Origin: an uncultured cyanobacterium
GTDB taxonomy: Bacteria; Cyanobacteriota; Cyanobacteriia; Cyanobacteriales; FACHB-T130
Length of the DNA: 42,877 nt
Direction of reading: 5' to 3'
NCBI GenBank assembly: GCA_936920195.1
Contig: CAKZHE010000087.1
Span: 1-42,877 of the forward strand
The position numbers and the translations under genes were made by a program. Below are positions 7,827 to 33,575 of the stretch, piece after piece. The notes under the pieces are model-generated. The model made no database searches. It worked only from the letters and a program-made list of their open reading frames with translations, and was not told where the DNA came from. Within the stretch, counting starts at the first letter, position 1. The number at the start of each line of letters is the position of its first letter.

Positions 7827-9092
7827 ATGAATTGCTATCTTGGTATTGATTTTGGTACTTCTGGGGCGCGAGCGATCGCCATTGATGCCAATAAAACGAA
7901 ACTGGTTGAAGTTAGCCAACAGTTTGTGCCAGTAAATAATCTGGCAAGTAGCTGGCAGCAAACTTTGTGGATGCTGATAAAGCAAATTCCCCTGGAATGG
8001 CGAAAACAGGTAAAGGCGATCGCCATTGATGGCACTTCTTCTACAGTTCTGCTCTGCGATCGCATGGGCAATCCGGTGGCTGAACCGTTGATGTATAATG
8101 ATGGGCGGGGCGCGGAGGTGATGGCAACCTTAAAGGAGATTGTCCCGCCAAAACATACAGCATTGAGCGCTACTTCCAGTTTAGCAAAATTGCTGTGGTT
8201 TGTAAAAGCATTAAATTTGAAAGCTGAAAATTATTACTTTCTCCATCAAGCTGATTGGCTGGCTTTTTTGCTGCACGGAAAACTAGGAATTAGTGACTAT
8301 CACAATGCTTTAAAGTTGGGTTACGATGTCGAAAATCTTGGCTATCCCAGTTGGTTAGAAAATTTTCCCCAAAGGTGTTGGTTGCCAAAAGTCTTGGCTC
8401 CTGGTACGCCTGTGAGTGAGGTGACAGCAGCAGTTGTCCATAGTTTAAGTTTGCCAGCCGATTGTTTAGTTTGTACGGGAACAACTGATAGCATTGCGGC
8501 TTTTTTAGCTAGTGGTGCTTCCCTACCAGGGGAGGCGGTGACATCCCTCGGTTCAACTTTGGCAGTGAAGTTATTAAGTCAAACTCGTGTTGAGGATGCG
8601 AGTTATGGCATTTATAGTCACAGATTAGGAGATTTGTGGCTGGCGGGGGGTGCTTCTAATACTGGTGGAGCGGTATTGCGAAAGTTTTTTACTGATGCAG
8701 AATTAACTGATTTGAGCGTTCAAATTAATCCAGATATTGCTAGTTTATTAGATTATTATCCGTTGTTAAAAGAGGGCGATCGCTTTCCGATTAACGATCC
8801 TAATTTACCACCTCGGTTAACTCCTCGCCCTACAGATCCGGTCGAATTTTTACACGGTTTACTAGAAAGTATGGCTCGAATTGAAGCACGGGGATATCAA
8901 CTTTTGCAAGAATTGGGAGCAACCAAATTAAAGTGCGTTTATACGGCTGGTGGCGGGGCTAAAAATGCTGTTTGGACAAAAATCCGTAGTCGTCATCTAC
9001 AAGTACCGATGTTGCCACCATTGCAAGCGGATGCTGCCTATGGGGTAGCTTTATTGAGTCAGGAAATAAGCTATACTGACAAGAGAATATAG
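7827..9092 (+). CDS. FGGY-family sugar kinase, probable D-ribulose kinase
   Basis: A 421-residue FGGY-family carbohydrate kinase. The N-terminal phosphate-binding motif is YLGIDFGTSGARA with a following IDGTSSTVLL segment, and the second ATPase half has TSLGSTLAVK, GGASNTGGAVL and YTAGGGAKNAVW. The length (about 420 rather than about 500) and these motifs match the cyanobacterial/plant subgroup shown to phosphorylate D-ribulose, so that is the most likely substrate; D-xylulose is the alternative. It would feed ribulose back into the pentose phosphate/Calvin pathway. It is cytosolic. The ATG at 7827 has no strong Shine-Dalgarno. The small protein/HNH pair follows closely. Confidence 0.85.
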   Translation: MNCYLGIDFGTSGARAIAIDANKTKLVEVSQQFVPVNNLASSWQQTLWMLIKQIPLEWRKQVKAIAIDGTSSTVLLCDRMGNPVAEPLMYNDGRGAEVMATLKEIVPPKHTALSATSSLAKLLWFVKALNLKAENYYFLHQADWLAFLLHGKLGISDYHNALKLGYDVENLGYPSWLENFPQRCWLPKVLAPGTPVSEVTAAVVHSLSLPADCLVCTGTTDSIAAFLASGASLPGEAVTSLGSTLAVKLLSQTRVEDASYGIYSHRLGDLWLAGGASNTGGAVLRKFFTDAELTDLSVQINPDIASLLDYYPLLKEGDRFPINDPNLPPRLTPRPTDPVEFLHGLLESMARIEARGYQLLQELGATKLKCVYTAGGGAKNAVWTKIRSRHLQVPMLPPLQADAAYGVALLSQEISYTDKRI

Positions 9093-18038: not shown

Positions 18039-19067
18039 ATGACAAATTATGCTAGAGACATTCATGCCTTGAAATCCCATGCCGTAATGTGGTGGCCTGA
18101 AGATTTCAAAAATGAAAATGCCACAATAAGTATTATTCCTAGATTGCTTGAGACACAAGACGATTTCATCTCAATTTTAAAATTGAGTAAAAATAGTCCT
18201 ACACAAGTCTTTGAGCTTGTGGAAGCAGCAAAGTTTCCAGCCAATTTATTTCTGAAGCACTTAGTTGTGATTTCAGACTATGGTGGTGAACTGATTCAAA
18301 GGCTAGGAAAAAGTTTCACAGATATTTTTACCAAAAAAGATCTGACTGGTAAACCAATAATGGATTATATCTGGAAACAAAGAAATTATCAGTATATTTT
18401 TAAATCAATGCCAGTCAAAGGATTAAGCAATACAAAGCTTAATATCGATGGCAAAGGGTTGCAATCGGAGCAACCTTTTGATAGCCTTAAGCGTGACATG
18501 ACCATGATTTTACTTTATGCTAGTACGTCTGACGTTTCAGAACTGGCTGGTTTAGAGGTCTGTCTTCTCGGCTCTTTACTTGGCGATGCAGCTGCTTTAG
18601 ATCGTCATATAAAGCAAAGATATATAGTTGTCAGTCGCATAACAGGTGGTGCAAATGCCAACTCTTTAGGTCAATTAGCGCAAAGTTATATTCTCAAATA
18701 CCTGAAAGAAAAATTGGGCAGTAAATTTGATATTACCAGTAATGCTTCAATTATCTTACCTGGTAATAATCAATCCCACGAAACTTTTGATATAGTTGTT
18801 TCCAAAGGAGGCAAGAATGTTGGAATTGAAGTTAGTTTTCAAGTGACTACCAACAGTACAATAGAAAGAAAATCAGCACAGGCAGCAGATAGGAAAGAGC
18901 GAATGAACCGTGCTGGACACAAAATAGCTTATGTGATTGACGGGGCTGGAAATTTTCAACGCTCTAGTGCCATCTCTAGAATTTGCCAGTATAGCGATTG
19001 TACAGTTGCCTATTCTAATAGTGAGTTTGATGTTTTAGCTGATTTTTTGTGCGAGAGTTTGCCATGA
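18039..19067 (+). CDS. Putative type II restriction endonuclease
   Basis: A 342-residue protein whose stop overlaps the start of a C5 cytosine methyltransferase (ATGA at 19064-19067), the classic layout of a type II restriction-modification pair. The C-terminal third contains a plausible PD-(D/E)xK core: FDIVVSKGGKNVGIEVSFQVTTNS, with Asp251, Glu264 and a Gln (Q268) in place of the usual Lys, followed by conserved-looking ERKSAQAADRKERM and KIAYVIDGAGNF. The N-terminal two thirds match nothing I know and would hold sequence recognition. The recognition site cannot be read from the sequence. The lower GC content than neighbouring genes fits horizontal acquisition. Confidence 0.78.
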   Translation: MTNYARDIHALKSHAVMWWPEDFKNENATISIIPRLLETQDDFISILKLSKNSPTQVFELVEAAKFPANLFLKHLVVISDYGGELIQRLGKSFTDIFTKKDLTGKPIMDYIWKQRNYQYIFKSMPVKGLSNTKLNIDGKGLQSEQPFDSLKRDMTMILLYASTSDVSELAGLEVCLLGSLLGDAAALDRHIKQRYIVVSRITGGANANSLGQLAQSYILKYLKEKLGSKFDITSNASIILPGNNQSHETFDIVVSKGGKNVGIEVSFQVTTNSTIERKSAQAADRKERMNRAGHKIAYVIDGAGNFQRSSAISRICQYSDCTVAYSNSEFDVLADFLCESLP

Positions 19068-20374
19068 TTCGTTTTATCGATCTTTTTGCAGGCATTGGTG
19101 GAATGCGGCTGGGTTTTCAACAGGCGTGTCATATTTTGGGAATAGAATCTAAATGTGTACTTAGTTCGGAAATTGATAAAAGAGCAATTGAAACCTATAA
19201 ATTTAATTTTGACGAGCAACCTACGGTCGATATTCGCGAAATTGCTCTAATACCTGAATTTGATTTTATGCTGGCTGGCTTTCCCTGCCAATCTTTCTCT
19301 TATGCAGGTAAACAAAAAGGTTTTGGAGATACCAGAGGAACGCTTTTTTTTGAAATCGAAAGATTACTCAGAAATTATAAGCCACAAGGTTTTTTACTGG
19401 AAAATGTTCGTGGTTTGACAACACACGATCGAGGCAGAACTTTTCAAACAATTATTAATTCACTAGAACAACTTGGTTATGGTATTCATTATCTTTTACT
19501 CAACAGCAGTAACTTTGGTGTGCCGCAAAATCGCGTTCGGATATACATACTAGGACTACTGGGGAAAAAACCAACGATTACACTTAGTTCGGATAGAGGG
19601 GCTACTGACTCTCATACTTTTAAAAAACAGCTAAATCAGTTAAGTCTTTTCGAGAATAATTATTCGATTGTCAAGGTGAAACATATTCTGGAAAAAAAAG
19701 TTGCTGAGAATTATTATCTCTCACAAGAGTTTGAGCAGCAACTATTTGATGCTGTTGGCGGTCAATTTGAAAAGCTTCATGGAGTTCGTCTGATTGACTT
19801 TCGGGGAGGAAATTCTATTCATTCTTGGGATTTAGGTATTAAAGGTAAATGCACAAAGGATGAGCGAGACTTTATGGATGCCTTAATATCGCATAGAAGG
19901 CATAAGGAATTTGGCGATCGCCAAGATGGTAAAAGCTTAACAATAGCACAAATCAAAACATTTTTTAACCATGAAAATATCGAAAATATTATCCGTTCGC
20001 TGATTAACAAAAAATATCTTAAAGAAGTAAATGGCAGGTATAATCCTGTGAGTGGAAATATGTCTTTCGAGGTTTTTAAGTTTCTCGATCCAGAGAGTAT
20101 TTCCATAACGCTTACGTCATCTGATGCCAATAAGTTGGGTGTAATTCAGAATGGGCGACCTAGAAGAATAACGCCTCGTGAATGTGCCAGATTACAAGGT
20201 TTTCCAGATTCTTATATTATTCATCCAAATGATGATGCTGCATACAAGCAGTTTGGTAATGCAGTCAGTGTGCCTGTAATTACAGCAGTTTTAACTGATT
20301 TTATTAAACATAATAGTCTAGAAAGGATAAGTTTTGGATTTGAGAAAAAACAAGCTCTTTCAGCATCTACTTGA
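19064..20374 (+). CDS. DNA (cytosine-5-)-methyltransferase
   Basis: Starts at the ATG at 19064 (MIRFIDLFAGIGGMRLGF, 436 residues); a GTG five codons upstream is less likely. All key C5-MTase motifs are present: motif I DLFAGIGG (SAM binding), motif IV GFPCQSFSYAG with catalytic Cys75, motif VI ENVRGL, motif VIII QNRVRIYI, motif IX near RRITPRECARLQGFP and motif X YKQFGNAVSVPV. Between VIII and IX the variable region holds an apparent winged helix (SLTIAQIKTFF..IRSLINKKYLKEVNGRYNP) within DFMDALISHRRHKEFGDR. This is an unusual target-recognition insert. It protects host DNA against the upstream endonuclease. Two MITEs follow directly. Confidence 0.95.
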   Translation: MIRFIDLFAGIGGMRLGFQQACHILGIESKCVLSSEIDKRAIETYKFNFDEQPTVDIREIALIPEFDFMLAGFPCQSFSYAGKQKGFGDTRGTLFFEIERLLRNYKPQGFLLENVRGLTTHDRGRTFQTIINSLEQLGYGIHYLLLNSSNFGVPQNRVRIYILGLLGKKPTITLSSDRGATDSHTFKKQLNQLSLFENNYSIVKVKHILEKKVAENYYLSQEFEQQLFDAVGGQFEKLHGVRLIDFRGGNSIHSWDLGIKGKCTKDERDFMDALISHRRHKEFGDRQDGKSLTIAQIKTFFNHENIENIIRSLINKKYLKEVNGRYNPVSGNMSFEVFKFLDPESISITLTSSDANKLGVIQNGRPRRITPRECARLQGFPDSYIIHPNDDAAYKQFGNAVSVPVITAVLTDFIKHNSLERISFGFEKKQALSAST

Positions 20375-23812: not shown

Positions 23813-24529
23813 TTATTCTCCGGGAATTTGTTTTTGAGCCGAGTCTTGCAACCTTCCGAGACGACGAGAAATTTCGTCATCAACGGTCATTTTTTCCATG
23901 TCAGCTTGCAGTTTTTCGTTGGGGTTTTCCGAGAGTTCTGCCAAGGAATTTTCTTTCAAATTCCGCCGCTCAACGGCATTTTTAGCGGTTTCAAACTGAG
24001 ACTTAGCTGAACCAATATCAAATTCATTATTAACTTTAGCGATCGCAGCAAGAGCTTCATTCACTTCCGCCATATCTTTCATATTCTGCATATCGGTTTT
24101 ATAGCTTTCTAGCTTGGTTCTTTCCCGATTCAGCTTTTCTTTGGAATTGGCTACTGCTTTCTCCGCTTGCTTCACCATTTCTTCTAATTGGGGCAGAATT
24201 TGCTCAATTTGAATTACTTTGGTCATTGCCATTCGCGCCGCTTCTTCATTGCCACGACGTTGAGCAATCAGGGCTTGACTTTCAAAAGTTTGTAATTCTT
24301 TGGCTTTGGACTCATATTTTTGTTTAGCGCGTTTATATGCCCAATCTTGCGTTGCTACTGCGGCGGCTAGTTTTTGTACCGATTCCTGCATTGATTGCAG
24401 AGACTCTTCCGCCACGGCAACAGCAATTTTACCGCCGGACTCTACTGGCATTCCCCACATCCAATTCCACACACCTACCACAGTGCGACCAGCTTTTTCT
24501 CCTAGCAACCAGTAGATAACTTTCTTCAT
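23813..24529 (-). CDS. PspA/IM30 (Vipp1)-like membrane-remodelling protein
   Basis: 238 residues from the ATG at 24529 (MKKVIYWLLGEKAGRTVVG); a TTG two codons upstream is open. The protein is almost all amphipathic helix, with long coiled-coil segments (LQSMQESVQKLAAAVATQDWAYKRAKQKYESKAKELQTFESQA, then LPQLEEMVKQAEKAVANSKEKLNRERTKLESYKTDMQNMK), the pattern of the ESCRT-III-like PspA/Vipp1 superfamily. The N-terminus differs from canonical Vipp1, with VVGVWNWMWGMP, a Trp-rich segment that could insert into membrane. It is likely a divergent paralogue that binds membrane. The next gene begins 7 bases downstream, so the two are an operon. Confidence 0.8.
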   Translation of the reverse strand: MKKVIYWLLGEKAGRTVVGVWNWMWGMPVESGGKIAVAVAEESLQSMQESVQKLAAAVATQDWAYKRAKQKYESKAKELQTFESQALIAQRRGNEEAARMAMTKVIQIEQILPQLEEMVKQAEKAVANSKEKLNRERTKLESYKTDMQNMKDMAEVNEALAAIAKVNNEFDIGSAKSQFETAKNAVERRNLKENSLAELSENPNEKLQADMEKMTVDDEISRRLGRLQDSAQKQIPGE

Positions 24530-24665
24530 AACCAAGTAGTGAAGATATTTACTGATGACGATACTTGGTAAAGGTTAATTCTATATTAAGGATGTATTAT
24601 CGCTCGTTTAAATAATTCAATCTGGGTAACAATTCAAAATTCTGAATTCAGAATTTTGAATTGTT

Positions 24666-24756
24666 CAGGACTTACGCAGTTGCTCCGCATATAGCGTTTA
24701 TGGTGCGTTACGCTACGCTAACACACCCTACTAATATAGGTATTGCGTAAGTCCTG
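24666..24756. mobile_element. 91-bp MITE, copy 3
   Basis: 13-base perfect terminal inverted repeats CAGGACTTACGCA / TGCGTAAGTCCTG and a perfect 5-base flanking duplication TTGTT. The interior is almost identical to copy 2. It separates the PixA/AidA-like cluster from the PspA-like gene. Confidence 0.9.
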
Positions 24757-24772
24757 TTGTTTTTAGCATGAA

Positions 24773-25318
24773 TTACAGGGCAACTACTTTTAAAGAAGGT
24801 TTCTCAGCAGTGTTCAAATACACCTTCTCTTTTTTACCTTCCTGCTCTAGCTCCAGAACAAACCTGTAGTTATAAATGCCCGGTTTCAAAGTGCTTAATA
24901 CTGCTCCTGCCCAGTAATAATATACCGGACAATAGGGCGATCGCATCATGTCAGGACCGCCATAAATCTTCAACTCAATGCAGACTTTGCTTTCCGCAAA
25001 ATCATCATAATCGCCTTCTTGGTCATCCAGAAAAACGATATTATTGATTTTGGGCATTGGAGGCCACGTCCCATCGGGTCGCTTTTCCATATCCATAGGA
25101 TAAATAATCCAGTTCAGGACTTGCCCCGGTTTGCAGACGGTTTGCAAATGACCAGTTCCCTGACCGCTACCTCCCACGCTATTATCCATCATGTAGATGG
25201 CATCTTTGGTTGTGCCTTTTTTGACTGCTTTATGCAGGTCGAGGACAGTGACTATATTCAGCTGCACTGAATTTAGCTGTCCGGGATTTTGCTTTTTAAT
25301 CGTGGACGTATCTGACAT
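24773..25318 (-). CDS. PixA/AidA-like protein, paralogue D
   Basis: A 181-residue soluble protein, last of four related genes. The shared pattern reads LNIVTVLDLHKAV..., then IYMMDNSVGGSGQGTGHLQT...GQVLNWIIYPMD, and later YYYWAGAVLSTLKPGIYNYRFVLEL. This GQGT-L...W and YYW..V...PG.Y.Y.F layout is that of the PixA/AidA inclusion-body family, proteins induced at high density in Xenorhabdus and Burkholderia-type bacteria and of unknown biochemical role. The identification is by eye and moderate. There is no signal peptide, so it is probably cytosolic. It lies 82 bases after paralogue C. Confidence 0.68.
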   Translation of the reverse strand: MSDTSTIKKQNPGQLNSVQLNIVTVLDLHKAVKKGTTKDAIYMMDNSVGGSGQGTGHLQTVCKPGQVLNWIIYPMDMEKRPDGTWPPMPKINNIVFLDDQEGDYDDFAESKVCIELKIYGGPDMMRSPYCPVYYYWAGAVLSTLKPGIYNYRFVLELEQEGKKEKVYLNTAEKPSLKVVAL

Positions 25319-25400
25319 AGTTTTTCTCTGGTTAGTTGAACAAATTGTGATTTTCTACCAGTTCTGAAGACGCAAAATATCAACTCTGCTGGTTAATGGT

Positions 25401-25862
25401 TTAGGAACCCTTACCAATGAGATAGAGAGGAGAAGCAGTCGGGATGGATTCATCGCGAGTCCCTACTTTAAATTTCACCGTGTAGGGAACCGGGGAGGTG
25501 ATATCTTTTTTCACCGTACCCATCCAGTAGGAGACATCAGTTCCTTCGTAAACCTTCTTTTCTGGCTCGCAGTATTCGGGGTCAATGATGATTTCATCGA
25601 TGGCAGCATAGGCTTCGCATTCTAAGAAGATCACCGTCCAAACCAATCGATATCCGGCTGACACCACTGTTCTCAAATTCTCAGTGCCTTGTCCAGTGGA
25701 ACCCTCAGCTTTATTGGTGTCCATAAAATAGACTTGCCCAGCCAAGGAATCTGTTGCCAAGATTCCCACCACGTCTACTACACTAGCGATCGTGATCGTT
25801 TTTGTTGGGGTTGGGATAACTTGTGGTTCGCTTTTTGGAGTTGCGCTCGTTTTTGTGGCCAT
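25401..25862 (-). CDS. PixA/AidA-like protein, paralogue C
   Basis: 153 residues. After a flexible Thr/Pro-rich N-terminus (about 20 residues) come ITIASVVDVVGIL, VYFMDTNKAEGSTGQGTENLRTVVSAGYRLVWTVIFLE and DVSYWMGTVKKDITSPVPYTVKFKVGT. These align by eye with the same positions of paralogues A and D (VVDV, MDN/MDT, GQGT.NL.T, W.I/V, PG/P.Y..F). It starts 49 bases after the stop of the 277-residue paralogue B. No catalytic signature is seen, so the role is probably structural or ligand binding. Confidence 0.66.
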   Translation of the reverse strand: MATKTSATPKSEPQVIPTPTKTITIASVVDVVGILATDSLAGQVYFMDTNKAEGSTGQGTENLRTVVSAGYRLVWTVIFLECEAYAAIDEIIIDPEYCEPEKKVYEGTDVSYWMGTVKKDITSPVPYTVKFKVGTRDESIPTASPLYLIGKGS

Positions 25863-25911
25863 AATTTGTCTTCCATTTTTGGGGATTGGGTTGAAAAAAT
25901 TCAGCAGTTAA

Positions 25912-26745
25912 CTATGCAATGGGAATCGGCAAGTATCCCACACCAGCATTGGTAAAACCATTTTTCTTCTGGTCATTGCTAATCTTGATATAAGCTTCGC
26001 ACTTCATGTGGACAGGAATCCAAGTCCATACGCCATCAGACCAGATCAGCTTATATAGTTGAATATCCATGGTGTAGGCATAGGTTCCTGGTGTAGACGT
26101 ATCAACAGATGCCGCCCAGTACCAACCGTCTGTCACCATATCGGGAGAGCCATAGGCGGCTGGATAAATGATCTTTTTATCCACGGCTTCACCACTGATA
26201 TCTGTAATGAGTGGATTAAGCGAATTGATCTCCGGAATTTTGTCTTTAGATGCCGAGATAAGTTCCCCGGTGACATCCATAATTTTCTGCCCAGAAGTCC
26301 CCAAATCGCGGGTGGTATCGCTATATTTATCTTGGACTTGAGTCTTAATCCCCGTGCTTTTGGAGATTCTTTTTAGTTCCTCGATCACATCATCAACGTT
26401 GGTAAATTCATCCGTGTCAGTAGAGGTGATTTTATCTGCCAACGCCTTGATGTCTTCCAAAGCTTTGAGGTCGCTATTTTTGGATTTGTCTGCTAAAAAG
26501 CTCTTGGGCAAAGTAGGCGGCAGAGAACCAACCCCATAGGGCAACCAGTTCAGCACCTGCTCGTTGGCCTGGGAACCATCGATGTAACTACTGCCATGAA
26601 TGGCTGAAATCAATTTGTCGGTTCCTAGACCTTCTGAACCCTGCAATTTCATATTATCGAACAGGTAAGTATTGCCTTTCAATGTGTTCGCTTTTAAGGC
26701 TGCTTCCACATCAACCATCACTATAATTCCAAGCTGTTGGCTCAT
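25912..26745 (-). CDS. PixA/AidA-like protein with helical insertion, paralogue B
   Basis: 277 residues, nearly twice the size of its neighbours. The beginning (LGIIVMVDVEAALKANTLKGNTYLFDN..QGSEGLGTDKL) and end (YGSPDMVTDGWYWAASVDTSTPGTYAYTMDIQLY) match the family. Between about residues 80 and 195 lies an extra segment rich in charged helices (LKALEDIKALADKI, VDDVIEELKRISKSTGI). This insertion is absent from A and C and only short in D, so it may be a coiled-coil interaction module. The SPDM motif before the YW motif is shared with paralogue D (GPDM), suggesting B and D are closest. Confidence 0.68.
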   Translation of the reverse strand: MSQQLGIIVMVDVEAALKANTLKGNTYLFDNMKLQGSEGLGTDKLISAIHGSSYIDGSQANEQVLNWLPYGVGSLPPTLPKSFLADKSKNSDLKALEDIKALADKITSTDTDEFTNVDDVIEELKRISKSTGIKTQVQDKYSDTTRDLGTSGQKIMDVTGELISASKDKIPEINSLNPLITDISGEAVDKKIIYPAAYGSPDMVTDGWYWAASVDTSTPGTYAYTMDIQLYKLIWSDGVWTWIPVHMKCEAYIKISNDQKKNGFTNAGVGYLPIPIA

Positions 26746-26848
26746 AACGGTTCCTTTCCTCCTGAGTTAAAGTTAATTTTCACTCTCGAACAATCTAGGC
26801 AAAACTACCCATTAAATGCGGCGATCGCCAGCATTTTTTGACTGGCAG

Positions 26849-27280
26849 TTAAACTCGCTTCAAAGCAGGCGTATCTACATACATCAGACAGTTTTTCCCT
26901 TCATACATCTGTAGTTCAAACCTGTAACGGTACTCCACTCCCGGCACCAGGTAATACGGCACAATTCCCGACCAAACATTTAAATGCAGCTTATCGCTTT
27001 CTAGTTGGGTTGGGTCAGCGGGAATTGGTTCGCAGCTACTACCATCTTGGTTCAGAAAAGTAATCTTTCTAATGGCTACTGGTGTTTGTAAATCCAGGGC
27101 TAAGATTGTCCAATGGATCAGTTGTCCGGGATAGCACAAGGTGACTAAGTTCGGCGTTCCTTGATTCAGGCTCTCAAACGGACTATTGTCCATCATGCAA
27201 AGGTTGCCATTTAATAGCGTTCCACCTGAAAGCGATTCAATCACATCAACAACGCTGAATATGGTGATTTTTGATTCCAT
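26849..27280 (-). CDS. PixA/AidA-like protein, paralogue A
   Basis: 143 residues, the first of the four paralogues and the shortest. Readable family marks are IFSVVDVIESL, LCMMDNSPFESLNQGTPNLVTLCYPGQLIHWTIL and the C-terminal YYLVPGVEYRYRFELQMYEGK. A cysteine pair (C78-type SSCEPIP and KNCLMY) is specific to this copy. The gene is preceded by an AGGAGG-like ribosome binding site (plus-strand TTTTCCTCCTG near 27283) and, further upstream, by a hairpin. It probably belongs to the same transcript as the adenylating enzyme. Confidence 0.66.
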   Translation of the reverse strand: MESKITIFSVVDVIESLSGGTLLNGNLCMMDNSPFESLNQGTPNLVTLCYPGQLIHWTILALDLQTPVAIRKITFLNQDGSSCEPIPADPTQLESDKLHLNVWSGIVPYYLVPGVEYRYRFELQMYEGKNCLMYVDTPALKRV

Positions 27281-27315
27281 AATTTTCCTCCTGTGAGTTT
27301 ACTGCAAAATATCCT

Positions 27316-27352
27316 CATACCATAGAACCTTGACTAGCAAAGTTCTATGGTT
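27316..27352 (-). promoter_or_regulatory. Hairpin between the adenylating enzyme and paralogue A
   Basis: Inverted repeat with arms CCATAGAAC(C)TT and AAAGTTCTATGG around GACTAGC, in the 202-base gap. It lacks a T-run on the minus strand. It may be an attenuator or RNA-processing site that sets different levels of the enzymes and the PixA/AidA-like proteins. Confidence 0.4.
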
Positions 27353-27482
27353 AGCGATATTTTTTGGCGAGGTCTAAATGGTGAACTGCAATGCCATATA
27401 TCCCATGGAAGTTAGGGATTTGGAAATGCTTTTTTCAAGTTCAATCGTATCACGAAAGTTTGTTAATAAGCCACTTGTTTTG

Positions 27483-29039
27483 TTAAAAAATATCTCTAAT
27501 CCAAGGAACTTTGCCTACCTGCGTTCTATAAATCTCGTCAGACCATCTTTCCACCAATTTAATTTCAAAACTATAGCCCGTCTTCTCCAGGTAATAGGCA
27601 TTGGCTTCCCCTTGGTTAAATATAGACAAAGCTCCGGTTAAGGCTTCAACAAATAACCGATTTACCCCTGCTACTCCCAAGGTATTTTCCATTTTTAGAA
27701 ACAAAGTCCTCGGATCGTCTACTGCCGCCATCAGATGTAAAGTTTTCCTAGTCCGATAATTTAAAAACTGCATTTCGTGTGCCAATGCGAGTAGGTCAAA
27801 AACACCTGCTTCCTTTAATGAACGGGCTAGGGAAGCATAAACTGGGGGAGCAGGATATTGGGTGTCGCCAAGGTGAATTACATCGCCACTGCGACCTAAA
27901 AACTCGAATTGTTGGGTTTTCAGTCCTGTCCCATCTATATTGGGGCGACGGATGACTCGATCTCCTGATTTGAACCTGAGAAATGGGGCTTCATGGGCAT
28001 GAAGTCGAGTTACAACTAATTCCCCTTCTTCTCCTTCTGCTACCCAATGTCCTTTATCATCAACAATTTCTACTAAATGCAAACCGGGAACCGCAGCTAG
28101 ATAGGGAGATTCGGCTTTCAACTGCAAGCCAATAGCTTCGTTTTGGACTGTGGCAAAGTAGCTTAAAACTTCTAAATTGGGATAAAGCTCTTTTAGTTCC
28201 AGTTGTTTGCGATGGGGTAATACACCACTACCATACATGGCAACGCGGAAACTTTTTCGGGCTTCCTCGCGCAAGCCAATGCCGAGGTCGCTCAGGATGG
28301 CAATTCCGGCGGAAATTGCCATAATCGCTTTTGGTCCTTTGTAGGACATGATATGTTGAAAAACTTCTTTCATTACCGGGCCTGCACCCAGATAGTTGAT
28401 GCCGGGAATGTGTTGCAAAACACCTCCTACCATTGTGCCGCTACTCCACAGTTGAAAATCTGCCAAGGTAGTCCCTACCCACTTGGGTTCGTCCCCGGCG
28501 AGATAATCCTTTAACATATATTCGCCGATGAATTTTCCGGCAATTTTGTAGGTGTCGTGTAACTCCCGCAATGAATAAACCATTTCTACTGGGGAGCCAC
28601 TACTGGTACCACCACTGGCAACTATTTCAAAACCACCATAACTGAGGGGGACGACTAATCCGGGTCTTGCCCCCATGAACATATCACCCATGATGGTCTT
28701 ATCGCAGAGGGGTAGTTGCTGCCATTCTTCAAAATTACGGGGAGATTTTTTTAGTCCGGATTTCTCAATCAGATCTTTCCAGAGAGGATTGAGCAGGAAA
28801 GTATTGGTCATTTGCTGCAAACGCCGCAATACTAAGGCATTTTGAATCGAGAAATCGATTTCACTATAGGGAGTTTGGCAAAGCTTTTCGCATTCTTGCA
28901 TTTTTCCCCAGAATGAGGGCAGTTTAACCACTTCGTCAATTGACTTTGGCTCCAACTCTTCGGCGGGAATTAACTGATTAACTAATTTTCTAATGGCGTT
29001 GGGGGTCAATTTGCTTGGGTTCATTGCATCTTTATCCAT
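27483..29039 (-). CDS. PaaK-like AMP-forming acyl-adenylating enzyme
   Basis: 518 residues, of the ANL adenylate-forming superfamily and closest in layout to phenylacetate-CoA ligase (PaaK). The ATP-binding loop is ASGGTSSGSPVEM at about 141-153. Later motifs are FATVQNEAIG (A5-like), EGELVVTRLHAHEAPFLRFKSGDRV and FEFLGRSGDVIHLGDTQYPA (hinge region, GRSGD). A C-terminal lid domain follows, but the usual catalytic Lys is not obvious. It would activate a carboxylate as acyl-AMP and pass it to CoA or an amine. No carrier-protein domain is present. The 99-base gap to the upstream decarboxylase suggests one operon, so the acceptor could be the amine made by that enzyme (inference). Confidence 0.82.
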   Translation of the reverse strand: MDKDAMNPSKLTPNAIRKLVNQLIPAEELEPKSIDEVVKLPSFWGKMQECEKLCQTPYSEIDFSIQNALVLRRLQQMTNTFLLNPLWKDLIEKSGLKKSPRNFEEWQQLPLCDKTIMGDMFMGARPGLVVPLSYGGFEIVASGGTSSGSPVEMVYSLRELHDTYKIAGKFIGEYMLKDYLAGDEPKWVGTTLADFQLWSSGTMVGGVLQHIPGINYLGAGPVMKEVFQHIMSYKGPKAIMAISAGIAILSDLGIGLREEARKSFRVAMYGSGVLPHRKQLELKELYPNLEVLSYFATVQNEAIGLQLKAESPYLAAVPGLHLVEIVDDKGHWVAEGEEGELVVTRLHAHEAPFLRFKSGDRVIRRPNIDGTGLKTQQFEFLGRSGDVIHLGDTQYPAPPVYASLARSLKEAGVFDLLALAHEMQFLNYRTRKTLHLMAAVDDPRTLFLKMENTLGVAGVNRLFVEALTGALSIFNQGEANAYYLEKTGYSFEIKLVERWSDEIYRTQVGKVPWIRDIF

Positions 29040-29138
29040 TGCTTCTCGATCGTTTGTCAGTATCTCATTAAGTGCGATCGCTCGAACAGATCCTCAATTT
29101 TGAGCGATCGCCTGCTATCCATGTTTTGAAAGCAGCAT

Positions 29139-30692
29139 TCAGCTATGGATTGGTTTACTTTCCTTGAGTAATTCTTGCCCGATTTTCCTAATTTCACGGA
29201 GTAACGTCCGGAAGCGATCGCCATCGATTTGATGATTCATAAAAACGACGCGCAAACAACCCTTGCCTTCAATATCAACCTTGGAAATAAAGAATTTTCC
29301 CCCCTCTCTAATCCGGTTTCTAATGGCCACCTGAAAATCGGGAAAGGCGCTTTCCCTCAGATTGACTGGGAGATAGCGGAAGCAAAGAATGTTTGCTTCT
29401 GGTTGATGAAGGGTTTGGAAGTCTGGTTCATCGTTGAGGATCTCATACGCTTGGAGCGTCAACTGACAAAGATAATCAATTTTGCTGGCAAATAGGGCTT
29501 TACCATAGAGAGTCCACAATACCCACAGGTTCATAATCAGGGGTCGTTTGGTACACTCAAAGTTCTGTTCGGCGCTATCAAATTCGGTGTAAATATCTGG
29601 TTTCTTTTCAAAAACATAACTGGCATTCTGGCGGAAAGCTCCATAACTCTTGGGCTTATTTCTGTAAAAAAGCAGCGTACAAGCTGCTGGCAAAAACATC
29701 ATTTTGTGGGCATCTAAGATAAAGGAATCGGCTTTTTCAATTCCTTTTAACTTATGGCGCAATTGATCGGAAACCAGTAAGCTACCACCATGAGCGCCAT
29801 CGATATGTAGCCAGAGATTTTTCTCTTGGGCGATCGCCGCTAATTCGTCAATCGGATCGAAAGCTCCCATTGTTGTAGTTCCGGCGGAAGCTACCAGACA
29901 AAAAACCTTCAGTCCGCGTTTTTCGGCGGCTTCCAAGGTGGGGCGTACTTTGTCAATACAAATTTGGTTTTTCTGGTTGATGGGCAAGCGGACAATTTGA
30001 TCCTCACCAATGCCCATAATCCCCACGGCGCGGGAAATACTGTAATGGGCATCACCGACAGCGATCGCCGGACGAGGTTGCCCCTCCAAAGCTAAAATTC
30101 CCTCGGACCAAATCCGAGGGAATTTGTCATTTCTCGCCGCTAACAGGGCGGTTAAACTGGCTAATGATCCCCCAGAAGTGGTCACCATCGCAAAACTATC
30201 TCGCTCCCAACCAATGAATTGGTTAAACTCATCCGCCATAATCCGCTCAACCACATTGGGCAATTGGGCTGCTTCATAAAACGACGATGGCTGATTGACA
30301 GTCGAACTGATCAAATCAATCACCGCTGCCAAGGGAATGACACCAGAAAACTGCCGCCCCATATATCCCGGTGAGTGAACCTGTATCCCCGTTTTAATAT
30401 ATAAGTCAATAATCGCTGCCAGCTTTTCTTCCACCGTAACCACCCCGCCTTCGGAGGTCATCAGGTCTTTGGCTGCCTGGAGCAGAATATAGGGATTGGT
30501 CAGCGACAGCCCTCTAATGGAAGAGTCAGCCAAATATTCTTCCAACTTGGAAATAACCATCTCGGCATTTTTCCGAAATAATTGCGGATCGAAAACATCG
30601 AGATCCAGCCCTCCGGGTTGGTCAATACTTGGCTTCGGCTCGGAAGTTTCTAAACTGACCCCTATGGATTCCAGATTATCCGTCAAATACAT
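29139..30692 (-). CDS. PLP-dependent group II amino acid decarboxylase
   Basis: 517 residues, a fold-type I pyridoxal-phosphate decarboxylase of the glutamate/aromatic/diaminobutyrate group. The PLP lysine is Lys330 in ILDAHKMMFLPAA. The ring-stacking His216 is in GDAHYSISRA, the pyridine-N Asp298 in HIDGAHGG, and TTSGGSLASL holds the phosphate. The substrate cannot be told from sequence: glutamate, aspartate, cysteine sulfinate, diaminobutyrate or aromatic amino acids are all possible. It is first in the presumed operon with the PaaK-like enzyme and the four PixA/AidA-like genes, so it may provide an amine building block. Confidence 0.92.
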   Translation of the reverse strand: MYLTDNLESIGVSLETSEPKPSIDQPGGLDLDVFDPQLFRKNAEMVISKLEEYLADSSIRGLSLTNPYILLQAAKDLMTSEGGVVTVEEKLAAIIDLYIKTGIQVHSPGYMGRQFSGVIPLAAVIDLISSTVNQPSSFYEAAQLPNVVERIMADEFNQFIGWERDSFAMVTTSGGSLASLTALLAARNDKFPRIWSEGILALEGQPRPAIAVGDAHYSISRAVGIMGIGEDQIVRLPINQKNQICIDKVRPTLEAAEKRGLKVFCLVASAGTTTMGAFDPIDELAAIAQEKNLWLHIDGAHGGSLLVSDQLRHKLKGIEKADSFILDAHKMMFLPAACTLLFYRNKPKSYGAFRQNASYVFEKKPDIYTEFDSAEQNFECTKRPLIMNLWVLWTLYGKALFASKIDYLCQLTLQAYEILNDEPDFQTLHQPEANILCFRYLPVNLRESAFPDFQVAIRNRIREGGKFFISKVDIEGKGCLRVVFMNHQIDGDRFRTLLREIRKIGQELLKESKPIHS

Positions 30693-30801
30693 CTGAACGA
30701 TCTCCTTAATGTGGAACTCGATGGTCTGACAGTGTATTGATAGCGGTTCTTAATTTGGTTAGGACTGACACAATGTTCGCCAACCAAATTGTATTGATAT
30801 A

Positions 30802-30828
30802 TAGATAGCAAATGGCATTCGCTATCTA
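30802..30828. promoter_or_regulatory. Palindrome upstream of the decarboxylase cluster
   Basis: Perfect 8-base inverted repeat TAGATAGC / GCTATCTA with an 11-base spacer, about 110 bases before the decarboxylase start, with another AGATAGC copy at about 30838-30844. The surrounding 340-base gap has no gene. The arrangement suits a dimeric regulator, but no regulator gene adjoins. Confidence 0.42.
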
Positions 30829-31032
30829 TATCTAGCCAGATAGCATCTTGGGGTAATTCCTGTTGAGGCGATCGCGGACAAAATTCTTGCCGTAACTGAT
30901 GGGATGAACCAATAGTCTTGCGATCGGGAATGCTGCGCCCAAGCTATCTAAGAACCACTATATTTTCAATCGAAAACTAACCACAAAATCGCTATCAGCT
31001 TTAGCGCGTAATATAGTGATGTGGCACTCTTC

Positions 31033-31584
31033 TTATGAAGCACTTAAGTGTAGTGCCTCGCTAGTCGTTACAACCTTAGCATACGCAAAGGCAAGTGCTG
31101 CCATAAATGAACCATGAACTTCTGGGGCAGGTATGATCTGCCCGCCGAATTCCAGATCCTTGGCAGCACAGGCATCGTGAGCAACAATACACTCAAAACC
31201 AAAGTCGGCGGCAGCCCGAGTGGTAGCATCTACACACATATTACTCATTGCCCCAGAAATTACCAGTCGTTGAGCCGCAATATAATGTAAATCGCCCAGG
31301 AGACTGGTCTGGCGAAAGCTGTTTGGGTAGGCTTTCTCAATTACTCTTTCGTTGACTTGGGGTTGAACTGATTTATGAATCTTTACACCTTCTGTACCGA
31401 CAACAAAAAATGGCGCACCAGCGGGGGCGATGTGTTGAATATGGAAAATGGGGCGATCGCTCTGACGAAATGCCGCCAGCAATTTTTTCGCATTTTGCGC
31501 TGCCGCATCCATGTCAGCCAATGCCCATTTCCCGCCAGGGAAATAATCAACCTGAATATCAATTAGGATTAACGCAGTTTTCAC
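31033..31584 (-). CDS. Isochorismatase-like cysteine hydrolase
   Basis: 183 residues of the isochorismatase/nicotinamidase superfamily. The catalytic triad is visible: Asp9 (LILIDIQVDYF), Lys84 (VIEKAYPNSF) and Cys117 (SGAMSNMCVDATTRAAADFGF), with the cis-peptide region just before the Cys. It would hydrolyse an amide or related bond; the substrate is unknown. It is cytosolic. It lies upstream of the decarboxylase on the same strand, 340 bases away, so it may or may not be part of the same pathway. Confidence 0.93.
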   Translation of the reverse strand: MKTALILIDIQVDYFPGGKWALADMDAAAQNAKKLLAAFRQSDRPIFHIQHIAPAGAPFFVVGTEGVKIHKSVQPQVNERVIEKAYPNSFRQTSLLGDLHYIAAQRLVISGAMSNMCVDATTRAAADFGFECIVAHDACAAKDLEFGGQIIPAPEVHGSFMAALAFAYAKVVTTSEALHLSAS

Positions 31585-31681
31585 GATGGGATCTCCCTAA
31601 AACTTGATGGCAACTCTTTTCTAGCACAAAAGTTTTCAGGGCTAATCTAGCTTTGGCGAAATCATATTTTCTTTAAGAGAC

Positions 31682-31924
31682 TTAACTATTGACAACCCCA
31701 GCAGGCGAAGCACAAATTAACCGCTTGCCGCAACCTGCTTGAGAGTCTTTTCCTTGCCAACGACAGCCTTCTTTGGGAGCAGCCGGATCGCTACAACGGG
31801 GGGAAGGAGGTGTGGAAGGAGTCGTGCTAGGAGTGGTGGTGGCAGGTGGGGAGATACAGCCAGTCAGGGCTAGAGCCAGTAAAACAGCCGCGATCGCTAA
31901 TGTTTTTTGGTCGTTAGAGTTCAT
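31682..31924 (-). CDS. Small Cys-rich lipoprotein
   Basis: 80 residues from the ATG at 31924 (MNSNDQKTLAIAAVLLALALTGC). The lipobox ALTGC puts the lipidated Cys at position 23. After a Thr/Pro/Ser linker (TTTPSTTPSTPPSP) come four cysteines (RCSD, EGCRW, AGCGK, LICAS), probably two disulfides. The open frame extends 15 codons upstream, but that start would spoil the signal peptide. It is exported and membrane-attached; the function is unknown. Confidence 0.82.
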   Translation of the reverse strand: MNSNDQKTLAIAAVLLALALTGCISPPATTTPSTTPSTPPSPRCSDPAAPKEGCRWQGKDSQAGCGKRLICASPAGVVNS

Positions 31925-32588
31925 TATTAAAGAGCCAATCCTGATGCAGTATATTTTTAAGGCGATCACCCGGAGATTGTGGATTGAATCTGATAATTTT
32001 TCGCCACTATCTTCGCAATGGTTTCTTTGTCTGCTCCCCAGAGGAAAACATCAAAGTATCAGTTCGGTTATCCCACTGATTGCCCCCTACCTATTCTGGA
32101 GTTTCGGAGCCATGATTGGATATAAGACATTTGGTTGGCCTGTTAACTCCTTGTACTACTCTTTTGCCAATTCCCGTTCAGGCCGCCGCTGTCTCCATTC
32201 CTTGTCAGAGACTGTCGGTTGGTGTTTTCACCCATAATCCCGATACCAGAAATCCGAACCTTTACCCCTTTACGACAGTCTATATTTGTACTACGATAAA
32301 TCTAAGGCAAACTCATAACAACTTCGACTTTGACCCAGTATCGCCCGTCACTCATGCCTAAAGAGAGAACCGATTGCAGCCAGGAGCGGTTCCGCCACGA
32401 AAAGATTTGACGAGTCTATCACTACGAGTTTTCCTCCTCCCGGTAGTTGGGCAGGACTTTTTTATCGCTTTTGCAGGATGTTTGCTAGGGAAGAGTGTAG
32501 CTATTCTTGAATAGCCAAAGCTAGCAATCTACTGAGGGTTAAGCCCTGCTACGTAATTATTGCTTGTTTACGGAGTCAACCATCGCTC
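31925..32588. other. Long intergenic region before the sigma factor gene
   Basis: About 660 bases. Open frames cross it on the plus strand, but their composition is not protein-like and none has a domain I recognise; degraded coding sequence cannot be excluded. Near its right end is a perfect 16-base palindrome (GCTATTC TT GAATAGC, about 32500-32515), about 75 bases before the sigma factor start. It could act as an operator or a leader hairpin. Confidence 0.45.
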
Positions 32589-33575
32589 ATGTCAACTGCT
32601 AACACTAACAAAAAAATGACCAAATCACCAATGTTCACCGCCGATATGGTTCGCACCTATCTGCATGAAATTGGTCGAGTGCCACTGCTGACCCACGAGC
32701 AAGAGATAGTCTACGGCAAGCAGGTACAGCAGATGATGGCACTGCTAGAGGCCAAAGAAGCTTTAGGAGACGAACTGAACCGCGAACCGACTCTAGAAGA
32801 GTGGGTGGAGCGAGTATCATTGAGTGCTGAAGAAATCAATCGCGCGATCGCCATTGGTACGCACGCCAAGCGGAAAATGATTGAAGCCAACTTGCGCTTA
32901 GTAGTGGCAATTGCCAAAAAGTACCAGAAGCGGAACATGGAATTTCTGGACTTAATCCAAGAAGGAACCTTGGGATTAGAGCGGGGAGTAGAAAAATTTG
33001 ACCCCATGCGCGGTTACAAGTTTTCTACTTACGCCTATTGGTGGATTCGCCAAGCGATTACCCGGGCGATCGCCCAACAAGCGCGATCCATTCGCCTCCC
33101 GATTCATATTACCGAAAAGCTGAACAAAATCAAAAAAGTTCAGCGGGAACTCGCCCAACAATTAGGCCGCAGCGCCACTCCCGGCGAGATTGCTACCGCC
33201 TTGGAATTGGAACCAGCTTTAATTCGGGAATACCTGAATATTGCTCGTCAACCCATTTCCTTAGATGTGCGGGTAGGCGACAACCAAGATACGGAACTGC
33301 AAGACCTATTGGAAGATGATGGTCCGTCACCGGAACATTATATGACCCAAGAATCCTTGCGGCAAGACTTGGAAAATCTGTTGGCGGAACTCACTCCCCA
33401 GCAGCGGGAAGTCCTGACTCTGCGCTTTGGTTTGGAAGATGGGAATGAACTCTCCCTTGCCAAGGTGGGACAGCGACTGAATTTGAGTCGCGAGCGAGTG
33501 CGCCAACTGGAACACCAAGCTTTAGCGCACTTGCGGCGGCGGCACGCCACGGTTCGGGAGTATATTGCGAGCTAG
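32589..33575 (+). CDS. Group 2 RNA polymerase sigma-70 factor
   Basis: 328 residues. It lacks the long N-terminal region 1.1 of the primary factor, so it belongs to the non-essential group 2 sigmas of cyanobacteria (SigB-SigE type); I cannot decide which. Region 1.2 is DMVRTYLHEIGRVPLLTHEQE. Region 2 is ANLRLVVAIAKKYQKRNMEFLDLIQEGTLGLERGVEKFDPMRGYKFSTYAYWWIRQAITRAI, with normal -10 recognition residues. Region 3 follows with RSIRLPIHITEKLNKIKK. Region 4 has LTPQQREVLTLRFGLEDG and the HTH LSLAKVGQRLNLSRERVRQLE. It directs transcription under stress or changed light or nutrients. A hairpin follows the stop. Confidence 0.95.
   Translation: MSTANTNKKMTKSPMFTADMVRTYLHEIGRVPLLTHEQEIVYGKQVQQMMALLEAKEALGDELNREPTLEEWVERVSLSAEEINRAIAIGTHAKRKMIEANLRLVVAIAKKYQKRNMEFLDLIQEGTLGLERGVEKFDPMRGYKFSTYAYWWIRQAITRAIAQQARSIRLPIHITEKLNKIKKVQRELAQQLGRSATPGEIATALELEPALIREYLNIARQPISLDVRVGDNQDTELQDLLEDDGPSPEHYMTQESLRQDLENLLAELTPQQREVLTLRFGLEDGNELSLAKVGQRLNLSRERVRQLEHQALAHLRRRHATVREYIAS

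What the first reader, a model, noticed from the sequence alone, without database searches (positions are those of the whole stretch)
23813..30692. Candidate undescribed system: decarboxylase + PaaK-like ligase + four PixA/AidA-like paralogues
Seen: six same-strand genes in order PLP decarboxylase, acyl-adenylating enzyme, then four divergent copies of one protein family (shared MDN..GQGT..L..W and YYW..PG.Y.Y.F layout), with gaps of 49-202 bases. Known: PixA/AidA proteins accumulate as inclusion bodies or are quorum-induced in some Gammaproteobacteria and Betaproteobacteria, but their biochemical role is unknown. Inference: the two enzymes could make an amide or a small molecule from an amino acid-derived amine, and the PixA/AidA-like proteins could bind or store it. 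Keeping four copies in a row suggests hetero-oligomer assembly or different ligands. I know of no description of this combination.
Basis: partly seen in the sequence, partly recalled or inferred. Interest (0 to 1): 0.85.

Follow-up and report, generated by a model that had tools for sequence, protein, structure and literature searches.

The report
Conserved decarboxylase–ligase–four-paralogue gene cassette
A set of genes for two or three enzymes plus four related small proteins of unknown role is kept together in the same order in cyanobacteria, a soil actinomycete and root-nodule bacteria, which points to an undescribed system that probably makes or handles an amine-derived small molecule.

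Summary
In detail: six minus-strand genes, decarboxylase (DC), acyl-adenylating ligase (LIG) and four paralogues (M1-M4), lie at 24773-30692. It is no local coincidence. Among 388 genomes of the window's order, LIG and the paralogue family were found in the same 8, four copies each, and in no other. The order recurs in 14 cyanobacterial genomes, in Nonomuraea, and on Bradyrhizobium and Sinorhizobium plasmids. On a tree each paralogue position forms one group across three phyla, firmly for M2 and M3, so the copies probably kept separate roles. A cysteine hydrolase gene (31033-31584) usually travels along. Seven of 14 cyanobacterial versions add an arylalkylamine-N-acetyltransferase-like enzyme, which fits an amine product. 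The paralogues are related to Vibrio MakC/MakD; Pfam's PixA model does not match them, though MakC/MakD resemble a PixA structure (PMC11484084). The PspA-like gene in the stated interval is not part of it. Substrates, product and assembly remain inferred: most likely an amine/acyl pathway whose enzymes or product are held by M1-M4. The paper searches showed no description.

The parts
29139..30692 (-). DC: group II PLP-dependent decarboxylase (517 aa)
   Evidence: PF00282 E 9.2e-54; PDB best Glutamate decarboxylase 1, 1.9e-55; K330 (PLP Lys), Y359 (aligned with the GAD67 loop Tyr434) and R481 (aligned with GAD67 Arg567) invariant in 10 aligned rows (GAD67 residue numbers and roles recalled)
27483..29039 (-). 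LIG: PaaK-like acyl-adenylating enzyme (518 aa)
   Evidence: No Pfam hit; NCBIfam FlxY 3.1e-10, far below cut-off; PDB 4r1l phenylacetate-CoA ligase 1.5e-7 single sequence, 6.5e-11 profile; motif ASGGT and Lys510 of GKVP invariant in 11 rows
26849..27280 (-). M1: MakC/MakD-related protein (143 aa)
   Evidence: NF049870 1.6e-11; one group on the tree in 13 of 13 sets, support only 60/72
25912..26745 (-). M2: same family with a large insert (277 aa)
   Evidence: NF049870 3.6e-9 in two stretches; alignment of 12; one group, support 100/100
25401..25862 (-). M3: same family (153 aa)
   Evidence: NF049870 1.2e-16; PDB 8rqy 2e-8, 6tct MakD 2.6e-6; one group, support 100/99
24773..25318 (-). M4: same family (181 aa)
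   Evidence: NF049870 2e-11; one group, support 89/90
31033..31584 (-). ISOC: isochorismatase-fold cysteine hydrolase (183 aa), usual seventh gene
   Evidence: PF00857 5.7e-33; PDB 3lqy 4.6e-51; near the cassette in 12 of 14 cyanobacterial genomes and in 3 of 3 rhizobial plasmids read; D, K, C positions kept except in one truncated frame

Best explanation
A mobile metabolic cassette. Shown: DC-LIG-M1-M2-M3-M4, usually with the hydrolase ISOC, recurs as one unit with intact active-site residues and four long-separate paralogues. Inferred: DC removes the alpha-carboxyl group of an L-amino acid and gives an amine (or omega-amino acid); LIG activates a carboxylic acid as acyl-AMP, probably on to acyl-CoA; the two products meet in an N-acylated amine or amide. 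In many cyanobacteria an arylalkylamine-N-acetyltransferase-like or a SnoaL-like enzyme modifies it further, and ISOC cleaves an amide or related bond in maturation or turnover. M1-M4 are cytosolic beta-sandwich proteins of the MakC/MakD kind that assemble with each other, each in a fixed position, to hold the enzymes or the product together.
For: Same 8 of 388 genomes for LIG and the M family, four M matches in each. Same 7 of 72,556 plasmid-collection records for LIG at 80% cover or more and for M1, M3 and M4 (M2, DC and ISOC were not searched there). Gene order kept across three phyla; from DC to M4, overlaps of 1 or 4 bases or gaps of 2-77 bases in the four non-cyanobacterial loci read. 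Tree: M1, M2, M3, M4 each one group, 3 changes = the minimum, shuffled mean 29.3. Catalytic residues kept. dN/dS 0.05-0.29. Arylalkylamine-N-acetyltransferase-like neighbour (PDB 4fd5 7e-10), found only beside the cassette in the 9 genomes searched for it; SnoaL-like neighbour in 4 genomes. MakC/MakD are cytosolic dimers and MakC forms large complexes (PMC11484084, read).
Against: No substrate could be predicted: DC falls below every NCBIfam cut-off, and at the positions aligned with GAD67 N212/F214 it has P135/S137. The AlphaFold models of LIG and M2 were too poor to use (mean pLDDT 40), so neither fold nor assembly was tested; no expression data were available. One genome (G485) keeps an intact DC without LIG or M1-M4, so DC can persist alone. 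In Symploca LIG and M1-M4 stand with only a DC remnant at the contig start. The acetyltransferase is absent from the window's genome and 4 of the other 7 carrier genomes searched. Nonomuraea has only a distant hydrolase (30% identity) on the opposite strand. MakC/MakD in Vibrio accompany a toxin, not enzymes.
Confidence: 0.45

Rival explanations
1. M1-M4 are the business end: anti-predator or host-interaction proteins, like AidA of Burkholderia, or partners of a pore-forming toxin like MakC/MakD, and the enzymes modify them or make a co-factor or signal for them.
For: Family link to MakC/MakD. AidA is required for virulence in C. elegans in B. cenocepacia (PMC9060813, passages); aidA and aidC mutants of Ralstonia lose virulence in the cool (PMC4596706, passages). 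Carriers include Dolichospermum and Aphanizomenon, which form grazed blooms (recalled).
Against: Ralstonia AidA is not needed for slow killing of nematodes (PMC4596706). PF05791 (Bacillus_HBL) in 0 of 8 carrier genomes, but that search had no true positive control (only two sub-cut-off matches in archaea) and the model need not detect MakA-like proteins. The flanks of ten loci share no DNA except between Dolichospermum/Aphanizomenon relatives and at the SnoaL-like gene; neighbouring ORFs were annotated only in part. MakC and MakD are not secreted and did not alter nematode survival (PMC11484084).
Confidence: 0.2
2. M1-M4 are carriers or chaperones that stabilise the enzymes, without a higher assembly or storage role.
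For: Fixed paralogue identity at each position; in Vibrio, makC deletion suppresses MakD and deletion of both abolishes MakB (PMC11484084).
Against: The Vibrio effects may be polar, as its authors say; nothing here tests enzyme stability.
Confidence: 0.2
3. A phage-defence or selfish mobile module: patchy spread, plasmid carriage, transposases close by.
For: Patchy: 8 of 388 genomes, and none of the 5 other genomes of the window's own family that are listed; on plasmids near transposases or a recombinase; decayed copies.
Against: No PADLOC match for the seven cassette proteins and only one weak PHROG match, to ISOC; no LIG relative in viral contigs, by a scan limited to two short patterns; one weak partial hit in 50,697 phage records. 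An amino-acid decarboxylase with an acyl ligase is unlike defence enzymes known to me (recalled).
Confidence: 0.08
4. Chance neighbours: an enzyme pair and an unrelated paralogue array that happen to lie together.
For: Only the lone DC in G485 and the DC remnant in Symploca.
Against: Complete co-occurrence of LIG and M family in 388 genomes and 72,556 plasmid-collection records; conserved order in three phyla.
Confidence: 0.01

Closest known systems
MakC/MakD of the Vibrio cholerae makDCBAE operon (NF049870; PDB 6tct, probably 8rqy)
   Same: M1-M4 are homologous (profile of M1, M3 and M4 rows against 8rqy 3.7e-18 and 6tct 4e-15; M2 by NF049870); adjacent paralogues kept together
   Different: Two copies beside a tripartite pore-forming toxin instead of four beside a decarboxylase and a ligase; M1-M4 are below the NF049870 cut-off of 110 bits (best 60.9); M2 has a large insert
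PixA/AidA inclusion-body family (PF12306; AidA, Bnr1, 4lzk)
   Same: MakC/MakD resemble 4lzk (DALI Z above 10, PMC11484084); adjacent paralogues occur (aidA-aidC in Ralstonia, PMC4596706, passages)
   Different: No PF12306 match; in Ralstonia the genes lie by a lectin and quorum-sensing genes rather than enzymes (PMC4596706)
PaaK-like CoA ligases (4r1l)
   Same: Adenylation motifs and a C-terminal Lys (motif roles recalled)
   Different: Remote (single-sequence E 1.5e-7; no Pfam match); substrate unknown
Group II PLP decarboxylases (GAD, PanP, L-2,4-diaminobutyrate decarboxylase)
   Same: PF00282, catalytic Lys, loop Tyr, carboxylate Arg
   Different: Below all NCBIfam cut-offs; set apart by a wide score gap (857-987 bits for orthologues, 264 for the next)
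CipA/CipB crystalline inclusion scaffolds of Photorhabdus
   Same: Works-like analogy only: inclusion proteins that can carry pathway enzymes (passage in PMC10771841)
   Different: No sequence relation tested or claimed

Membership tests
MakCD (NF049870) | Score over the curated cut-off of 110 bits | tested here: not met
   Best 60.9 bits (M3), others 36.7-44.3; relatives, not members by that rule
MakCD (NF049870) | Lies in an operon with MakA/B/E-type alpha-pore-forming toxin genes | tested here: not met
   The operon partners are DC and LIG. PF05791 in 0 of 8 carrier genomes, without a true positive control and with a model that may miss MakA-type proteins
PixA (PF12306) | Match to the Pfam model | tested here: not met
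   0 matches at E <= 1 for M1-M4; 0 in the window's genome, where the control rang nowhere, so that search alone shows nothing
PixA (PF12306) | Shared beta-sandwich (jelly-roll-like) fold | tested here: inconclusive
   Indirect: sequence match to MakD and published DALI of MakC/D to 4lzk (PMC11484084); own M2 model unusable
PixA (PF12306) | Accumulates as inclusion bodies | not testable with these tools
   Needs microscopy
Group II PLP decarboxylase (PF00282) | Model match with PLP Lys and loop Tyr | tested here: met
   9.2e-54, 183 bits against a cut-off of 27; K330 and Y359 invariant
PaaK-like acyl-adenylating enzymes | Adenylation motifs and A10-type Lys | tested here: met
   ASGGT, GDR and Lys510 invariant in 11 rows; the only solved hit of the profile at E <= 0.001 is 4r1l, 6.5e-11; motif names recalled, activity untested
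Isochorismatase-fold cysteine hydrolases (PF00857) | Asp-Lys-Cys triad | tested here: met
   5.7e-33; positions kept in the alignment, except that the L029 open frame lacks the N-terminal stretch with the Asp; triad recalled
Anti-phage defence systems (PADLOC) | Model match | tested here: not met
   0 at E <= 0.01 for the seven cassette proteins

The most novel reading that the evidence does not exclude
M1-M4 build a defined hetero-oligomeric protein body, made of MakC/PixA-fold sandwiches, that packs a decarboxylase and an acyl ligase and holds the amine-derived product. It would be a protein-only metabolic assembly unrelated to bacterial microcompartments, spread between phyla as one cassette, and would give the PixA/AidA/MakCD family its first biochemical role.
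Probability: 0.25. Interest if true: 0.9.

Novelty: new variant of a known kind. Interest (0 to 1): 0.72.

Why it matters
Proteins of the PixA/AidA/MakCD kind are quorum-induced or tied to virulence in several bacteria, yet the papers opened here give none of them a biochemical role. This cassette ties four fixed members to named enzymes in cyanobacteria and nodule bacteria that are not pathogens, so a role can be tested by enzyme assay, pull-down and metabolite comparison. If the pathway reading holds, it is also an undescribed small-molecule locus in bloom-forming cyanobacteria and in nodule bacteria.

Tried and rejected
PspA-like gene (23813-24535) as a member: rejected. No counterpart showed at the cyanobacterial loci (blastp E <= 1e-4); one L040 frame gave a trifling match (31% over about 60 residues, E 0.003). 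A perfect 19-base inverted repeat and a 13-base repeat pair lie between it and M4.

Loss of the catalytic-loop Tyr in DC (which would suggest an aldehyde-forming enzyme): considered on first reading, rejected after alignment to GAD67, where Y359 sits at the loop Tyr.

AlphaFold of M2 and LIG: mean pLDDT 40 each, so no fold search was run. Shared flanks as another reason for synteny: among the 5-kb flanks of ten loci compared as DNA, only Dolichospermum and Aphanizomenon relatives share flanks, apart from the SnoaL-like gene. RNA element: no Rfam match at gathering score in 24000-32600. Conserved promoter motif upstream of M1: none clear. Ribosome-binding sites before M1 and M2 are strong in the window, L027 and L028, weaker in L031, L034 and L053 (six loci looked at). 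Codon-usage test of high expression: abandoned, because only four ribosomal-protein genes were in the stretch fetched.

Literature: 9 searches. Six could have shown the cassette or its family in this setting (10, 48, 49, 63, 82, 85); I saw no such description in their listings or in the five papers opened. PMC10455584, which names an 'inclusion body family protein', was seen as a listing only. The library lacks most subscription papers.
Full report
What is there. On the minus strand lie DC (29139-30692), LIG (27483-29039) and four small paralogues, M1-M4 (26849-27280, 25912-26745, 25401-25862, 24773-25318), with gaps of 99, 202, 103, 49 and 82 bases. The stated interval also takes in a PspA/IM30-like gene (23813-24535) that is not named in the finding and has no clear counterpart at the other loci.

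Families. DC is a group II PLP decarboxylase (PF00282 9.2e-54; closest solved relative Glutamate decarboxylase 1). It keeps the PLP lysine K330, the residue aligned with the GAD67 loop tyrosine (Y359) and the one aligned with GAD67 Arg567 (R481) in all 10 rows aligned (GAD67 numbers and roles recalled). It passes no NCBIfam cut-off (best PanP, 174.9 of 606.1 bits), so its substrate is open. LIG has no Pfam match and a remote match to phenylacetate-CoA ligase 4r1l; the ASGGT motif and Lys510 near the C terminus are invariant in 11 rows. M1-M4 each match NF049870 MakCD below its cut-off and no Pfam family at E <= 1. A profile of M1, M3 and M4 rows finds only two solved proteins at E <= 1: 8rqy 'Inclusion body protein' (3.7e-18; its length would fit MakC, but the paper's text as held does not give the code) and 6tct MakD (4e-15). 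PMC11484084 (abstract, first part of the results and the discussion read) reports that MakC and MakD are cytosolic beta-sandwich dimers of unknown function with DALI Z above 10 to 4lzk, which PMC9060813 (passages) calls a PixA protein.

It is a unit. A scan of 84,980 species genomes with LIG, using two short peptide patterns and so able to reach close relatives only, gave 10 loci, all cyanobacterial. With the window and three further genomes from the order search, 14 distinct cyanobacterial genomes carry it; four other records were recognised as the same genomes (three by 100% identity over the fetched stretch; one because the fetched LIG stretch lies within L033). M1-M4 follow LIG in the same order in 14 of 14: in one the run is split over two contigs, and in L036, a thin MAG contig, LIG and M1 are frame-broken and M4 is cut by the contig end. 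Full-length or nearly full-length DC precedes LIG in 11 of 14; in L032 only its second half is found, in L035 a remnant, and L036 begins inside LIG. ISOC lies near in 12 of 14, upstream of DC in six and downstream of M4 in six, up to about 1 kb away; in L029 its open frame lacks the start.

Other phyla. A protein search of 72,556 plasmid-collection records found 7 with LIG at 80% cover or more, and the same 7 for M1, M3 and M4 (M2, DC and ISOC were not searched there): Nonomuraea gerenzanensis (LIG 59% identical; a record of 11.85 Mb filed as a plasmid), Bradyrhizobium barranii and four B. elkanii records, and Sinorhizobium alkalisoli (about 48%). Of these 7, I read 4 in full: all have DC-LIG-M1-M2-M3-M4. 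The three rhizobial ones then have ISOC, annotated 'cysteine hydrolase family protein', 201-318 bases on. Nonomuraea has only a 30%-identical hydrolase on the opposite strand. From DC to M4 the genes of these four overlap by 1 or 4 bases or are separated by 2-77 (Nonomuraea starts chosen by me), as in an operon. I could not search other phyla more widely.

Co-occurrence. Among 388 genomes of the window's order, LIG (E <= 1e-40) occurs in 8 and the M profile (E <= 0.001) in the same 8, with four matches in each. These searches score only the first-look candidates (up to 3 and 9 a genome). In a phylum-wide draw, the MakCD model rang in 2 of 386 genomes, and LIG orthologues were in 2 of 292; 11 more genomes gave weak, remote LIG hits. 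DC matches 100 of 388 genomes at E <= 1e-30, but orthologue-level scores (857-987 bits) fall in only 8: 7 of the 8 LIG carriers, and G485; the next score is 264. G485 has an intact DC with no LIG or M gene in the 19.5 kb read. G391 has only the first quarter of DC. G606 has ISOC and the first third of DC, followed by an opposite-strand ORF that looks to me like a group II intron protein (not searched). So the cassette seems to be gained and lost as a block and can decay.

Four distinct positions. In a maximum-likelihood tree of 52 proteins from 13 loci, M1, M2, M3 and M4 each form one group that spans Cyanobacteriota, Actinomycetota and Alphaproteobacteria: 3 label changes, the minimum, against 29.3 for shuffles. 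Support is 100/100 for M2, 100/99 for M3, 89/90 for M4 and only 60/72 for M1; the tool warns of long branches that meet. The copies therefore probably separated before the cassette spread and have not been replaced by one another, which argues for four non-interchangeable roles. dN/dS is 0.05-0.29 for seven genes in five pairs.

Clues to function. Beside the cassette in 7 of 14 cyanobacterial genomes (L027, L029-L032, L034, L056) is a GNAT enzyme whose best solved relatives are insect arylalkylamine and dopamine N-acetyltransferases (4fd5 7e-10). Of 9 genomes searched for it (8 carriers and G485), it occurs only in the three where it sits by the cassette. In four other genomes (L028, L052, L053, L055) a SnoaL-like protein is linked instead (Pfam match shown for two; the other two by similarity). 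Both are accessory and lineage-bound, and the window has neither within its 42.9 kb. An amine-acylating neighbour next to an amino-acid decarboxylase is what an amine pathway would show. Nothing here identifies a substrate, a product or an assembly: both AlphaFold models were poor.

Mechanism, graded. Shown: one unit, conserved order, intact catalytic residues, four separate paralogues. Inferred, moderately: a metabolic pathway through an amine or amino acid and an activated acid. Inferred, weakly: M1-M4 as a hetero-oligomer that holds enzymes or product, by analogy with MakC complexes in Vibrio (PMC11484084) and with inclusion scaffolds such as CipA (PMC10771841, passage).

Novelty. Six of nine paper searches could have shown this cassette or its family in this setting, and I saw no such description in their listings or the papers opened. 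Each part belongs to or resembles a known family; the combination, its spread and the link of MakC/MakD-like proteins to enzymes appear to be undescribed. I rate it a new variant of a known kind (a small metabolic gene cluster) rather than categorically new, because the function is not shown.

Noticed in passing
window 18039-20374 (+): A type II restriction enzyme and a neighbouring DNA cytosine methyltransferase frame that overlaps it (PADLOC REase_II 9.3e-118, MTase_II 1.5e-106): an ordinary restriction-modification pair near the cassette.
   Followed up: partly
window 23813-24535 (-): PspA/IM30-like protein (PF04012 7e-12), without clear counterparts at the other cassette loci.
   Followed up: partly
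window 24628-24756: A perfect 19-base inverted repeat with no loop and, beside it, a 13-base inverted pair 65 bases apart, between M4 and the PspA-like gene; it may be a terminator or a small mobile element.
   Followed up: no
L030 14368-14994 and counterparts in L027, L029, L031, L032, L034, L056: Arylalkylamine-N-acetyltransferase-like GNAT linked to the cassette.
   Followed up: partly
L028 5274-5741, L052 8821-9279, L053 13777-14247, L055 about 7989-8429: SnoaL-like protein linked to the cassette in four genomes, upstream in one and downstream in three.
   Followed up: partly
L071 9001-10515; L072 8043-8429; L073 2031-3265: A lone intact decarboxylase and two decayed cassette remnants, one followed by an opposite-strand ORF that looks like a group II intron protein.
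   Followed up: partly
L035 243-2939: In Symploca a decarboxylase fragment runs into a second, partial copy of the ligase ahead of the intact ligase: a rearranged or duplicated cassette.
   Followed up: no
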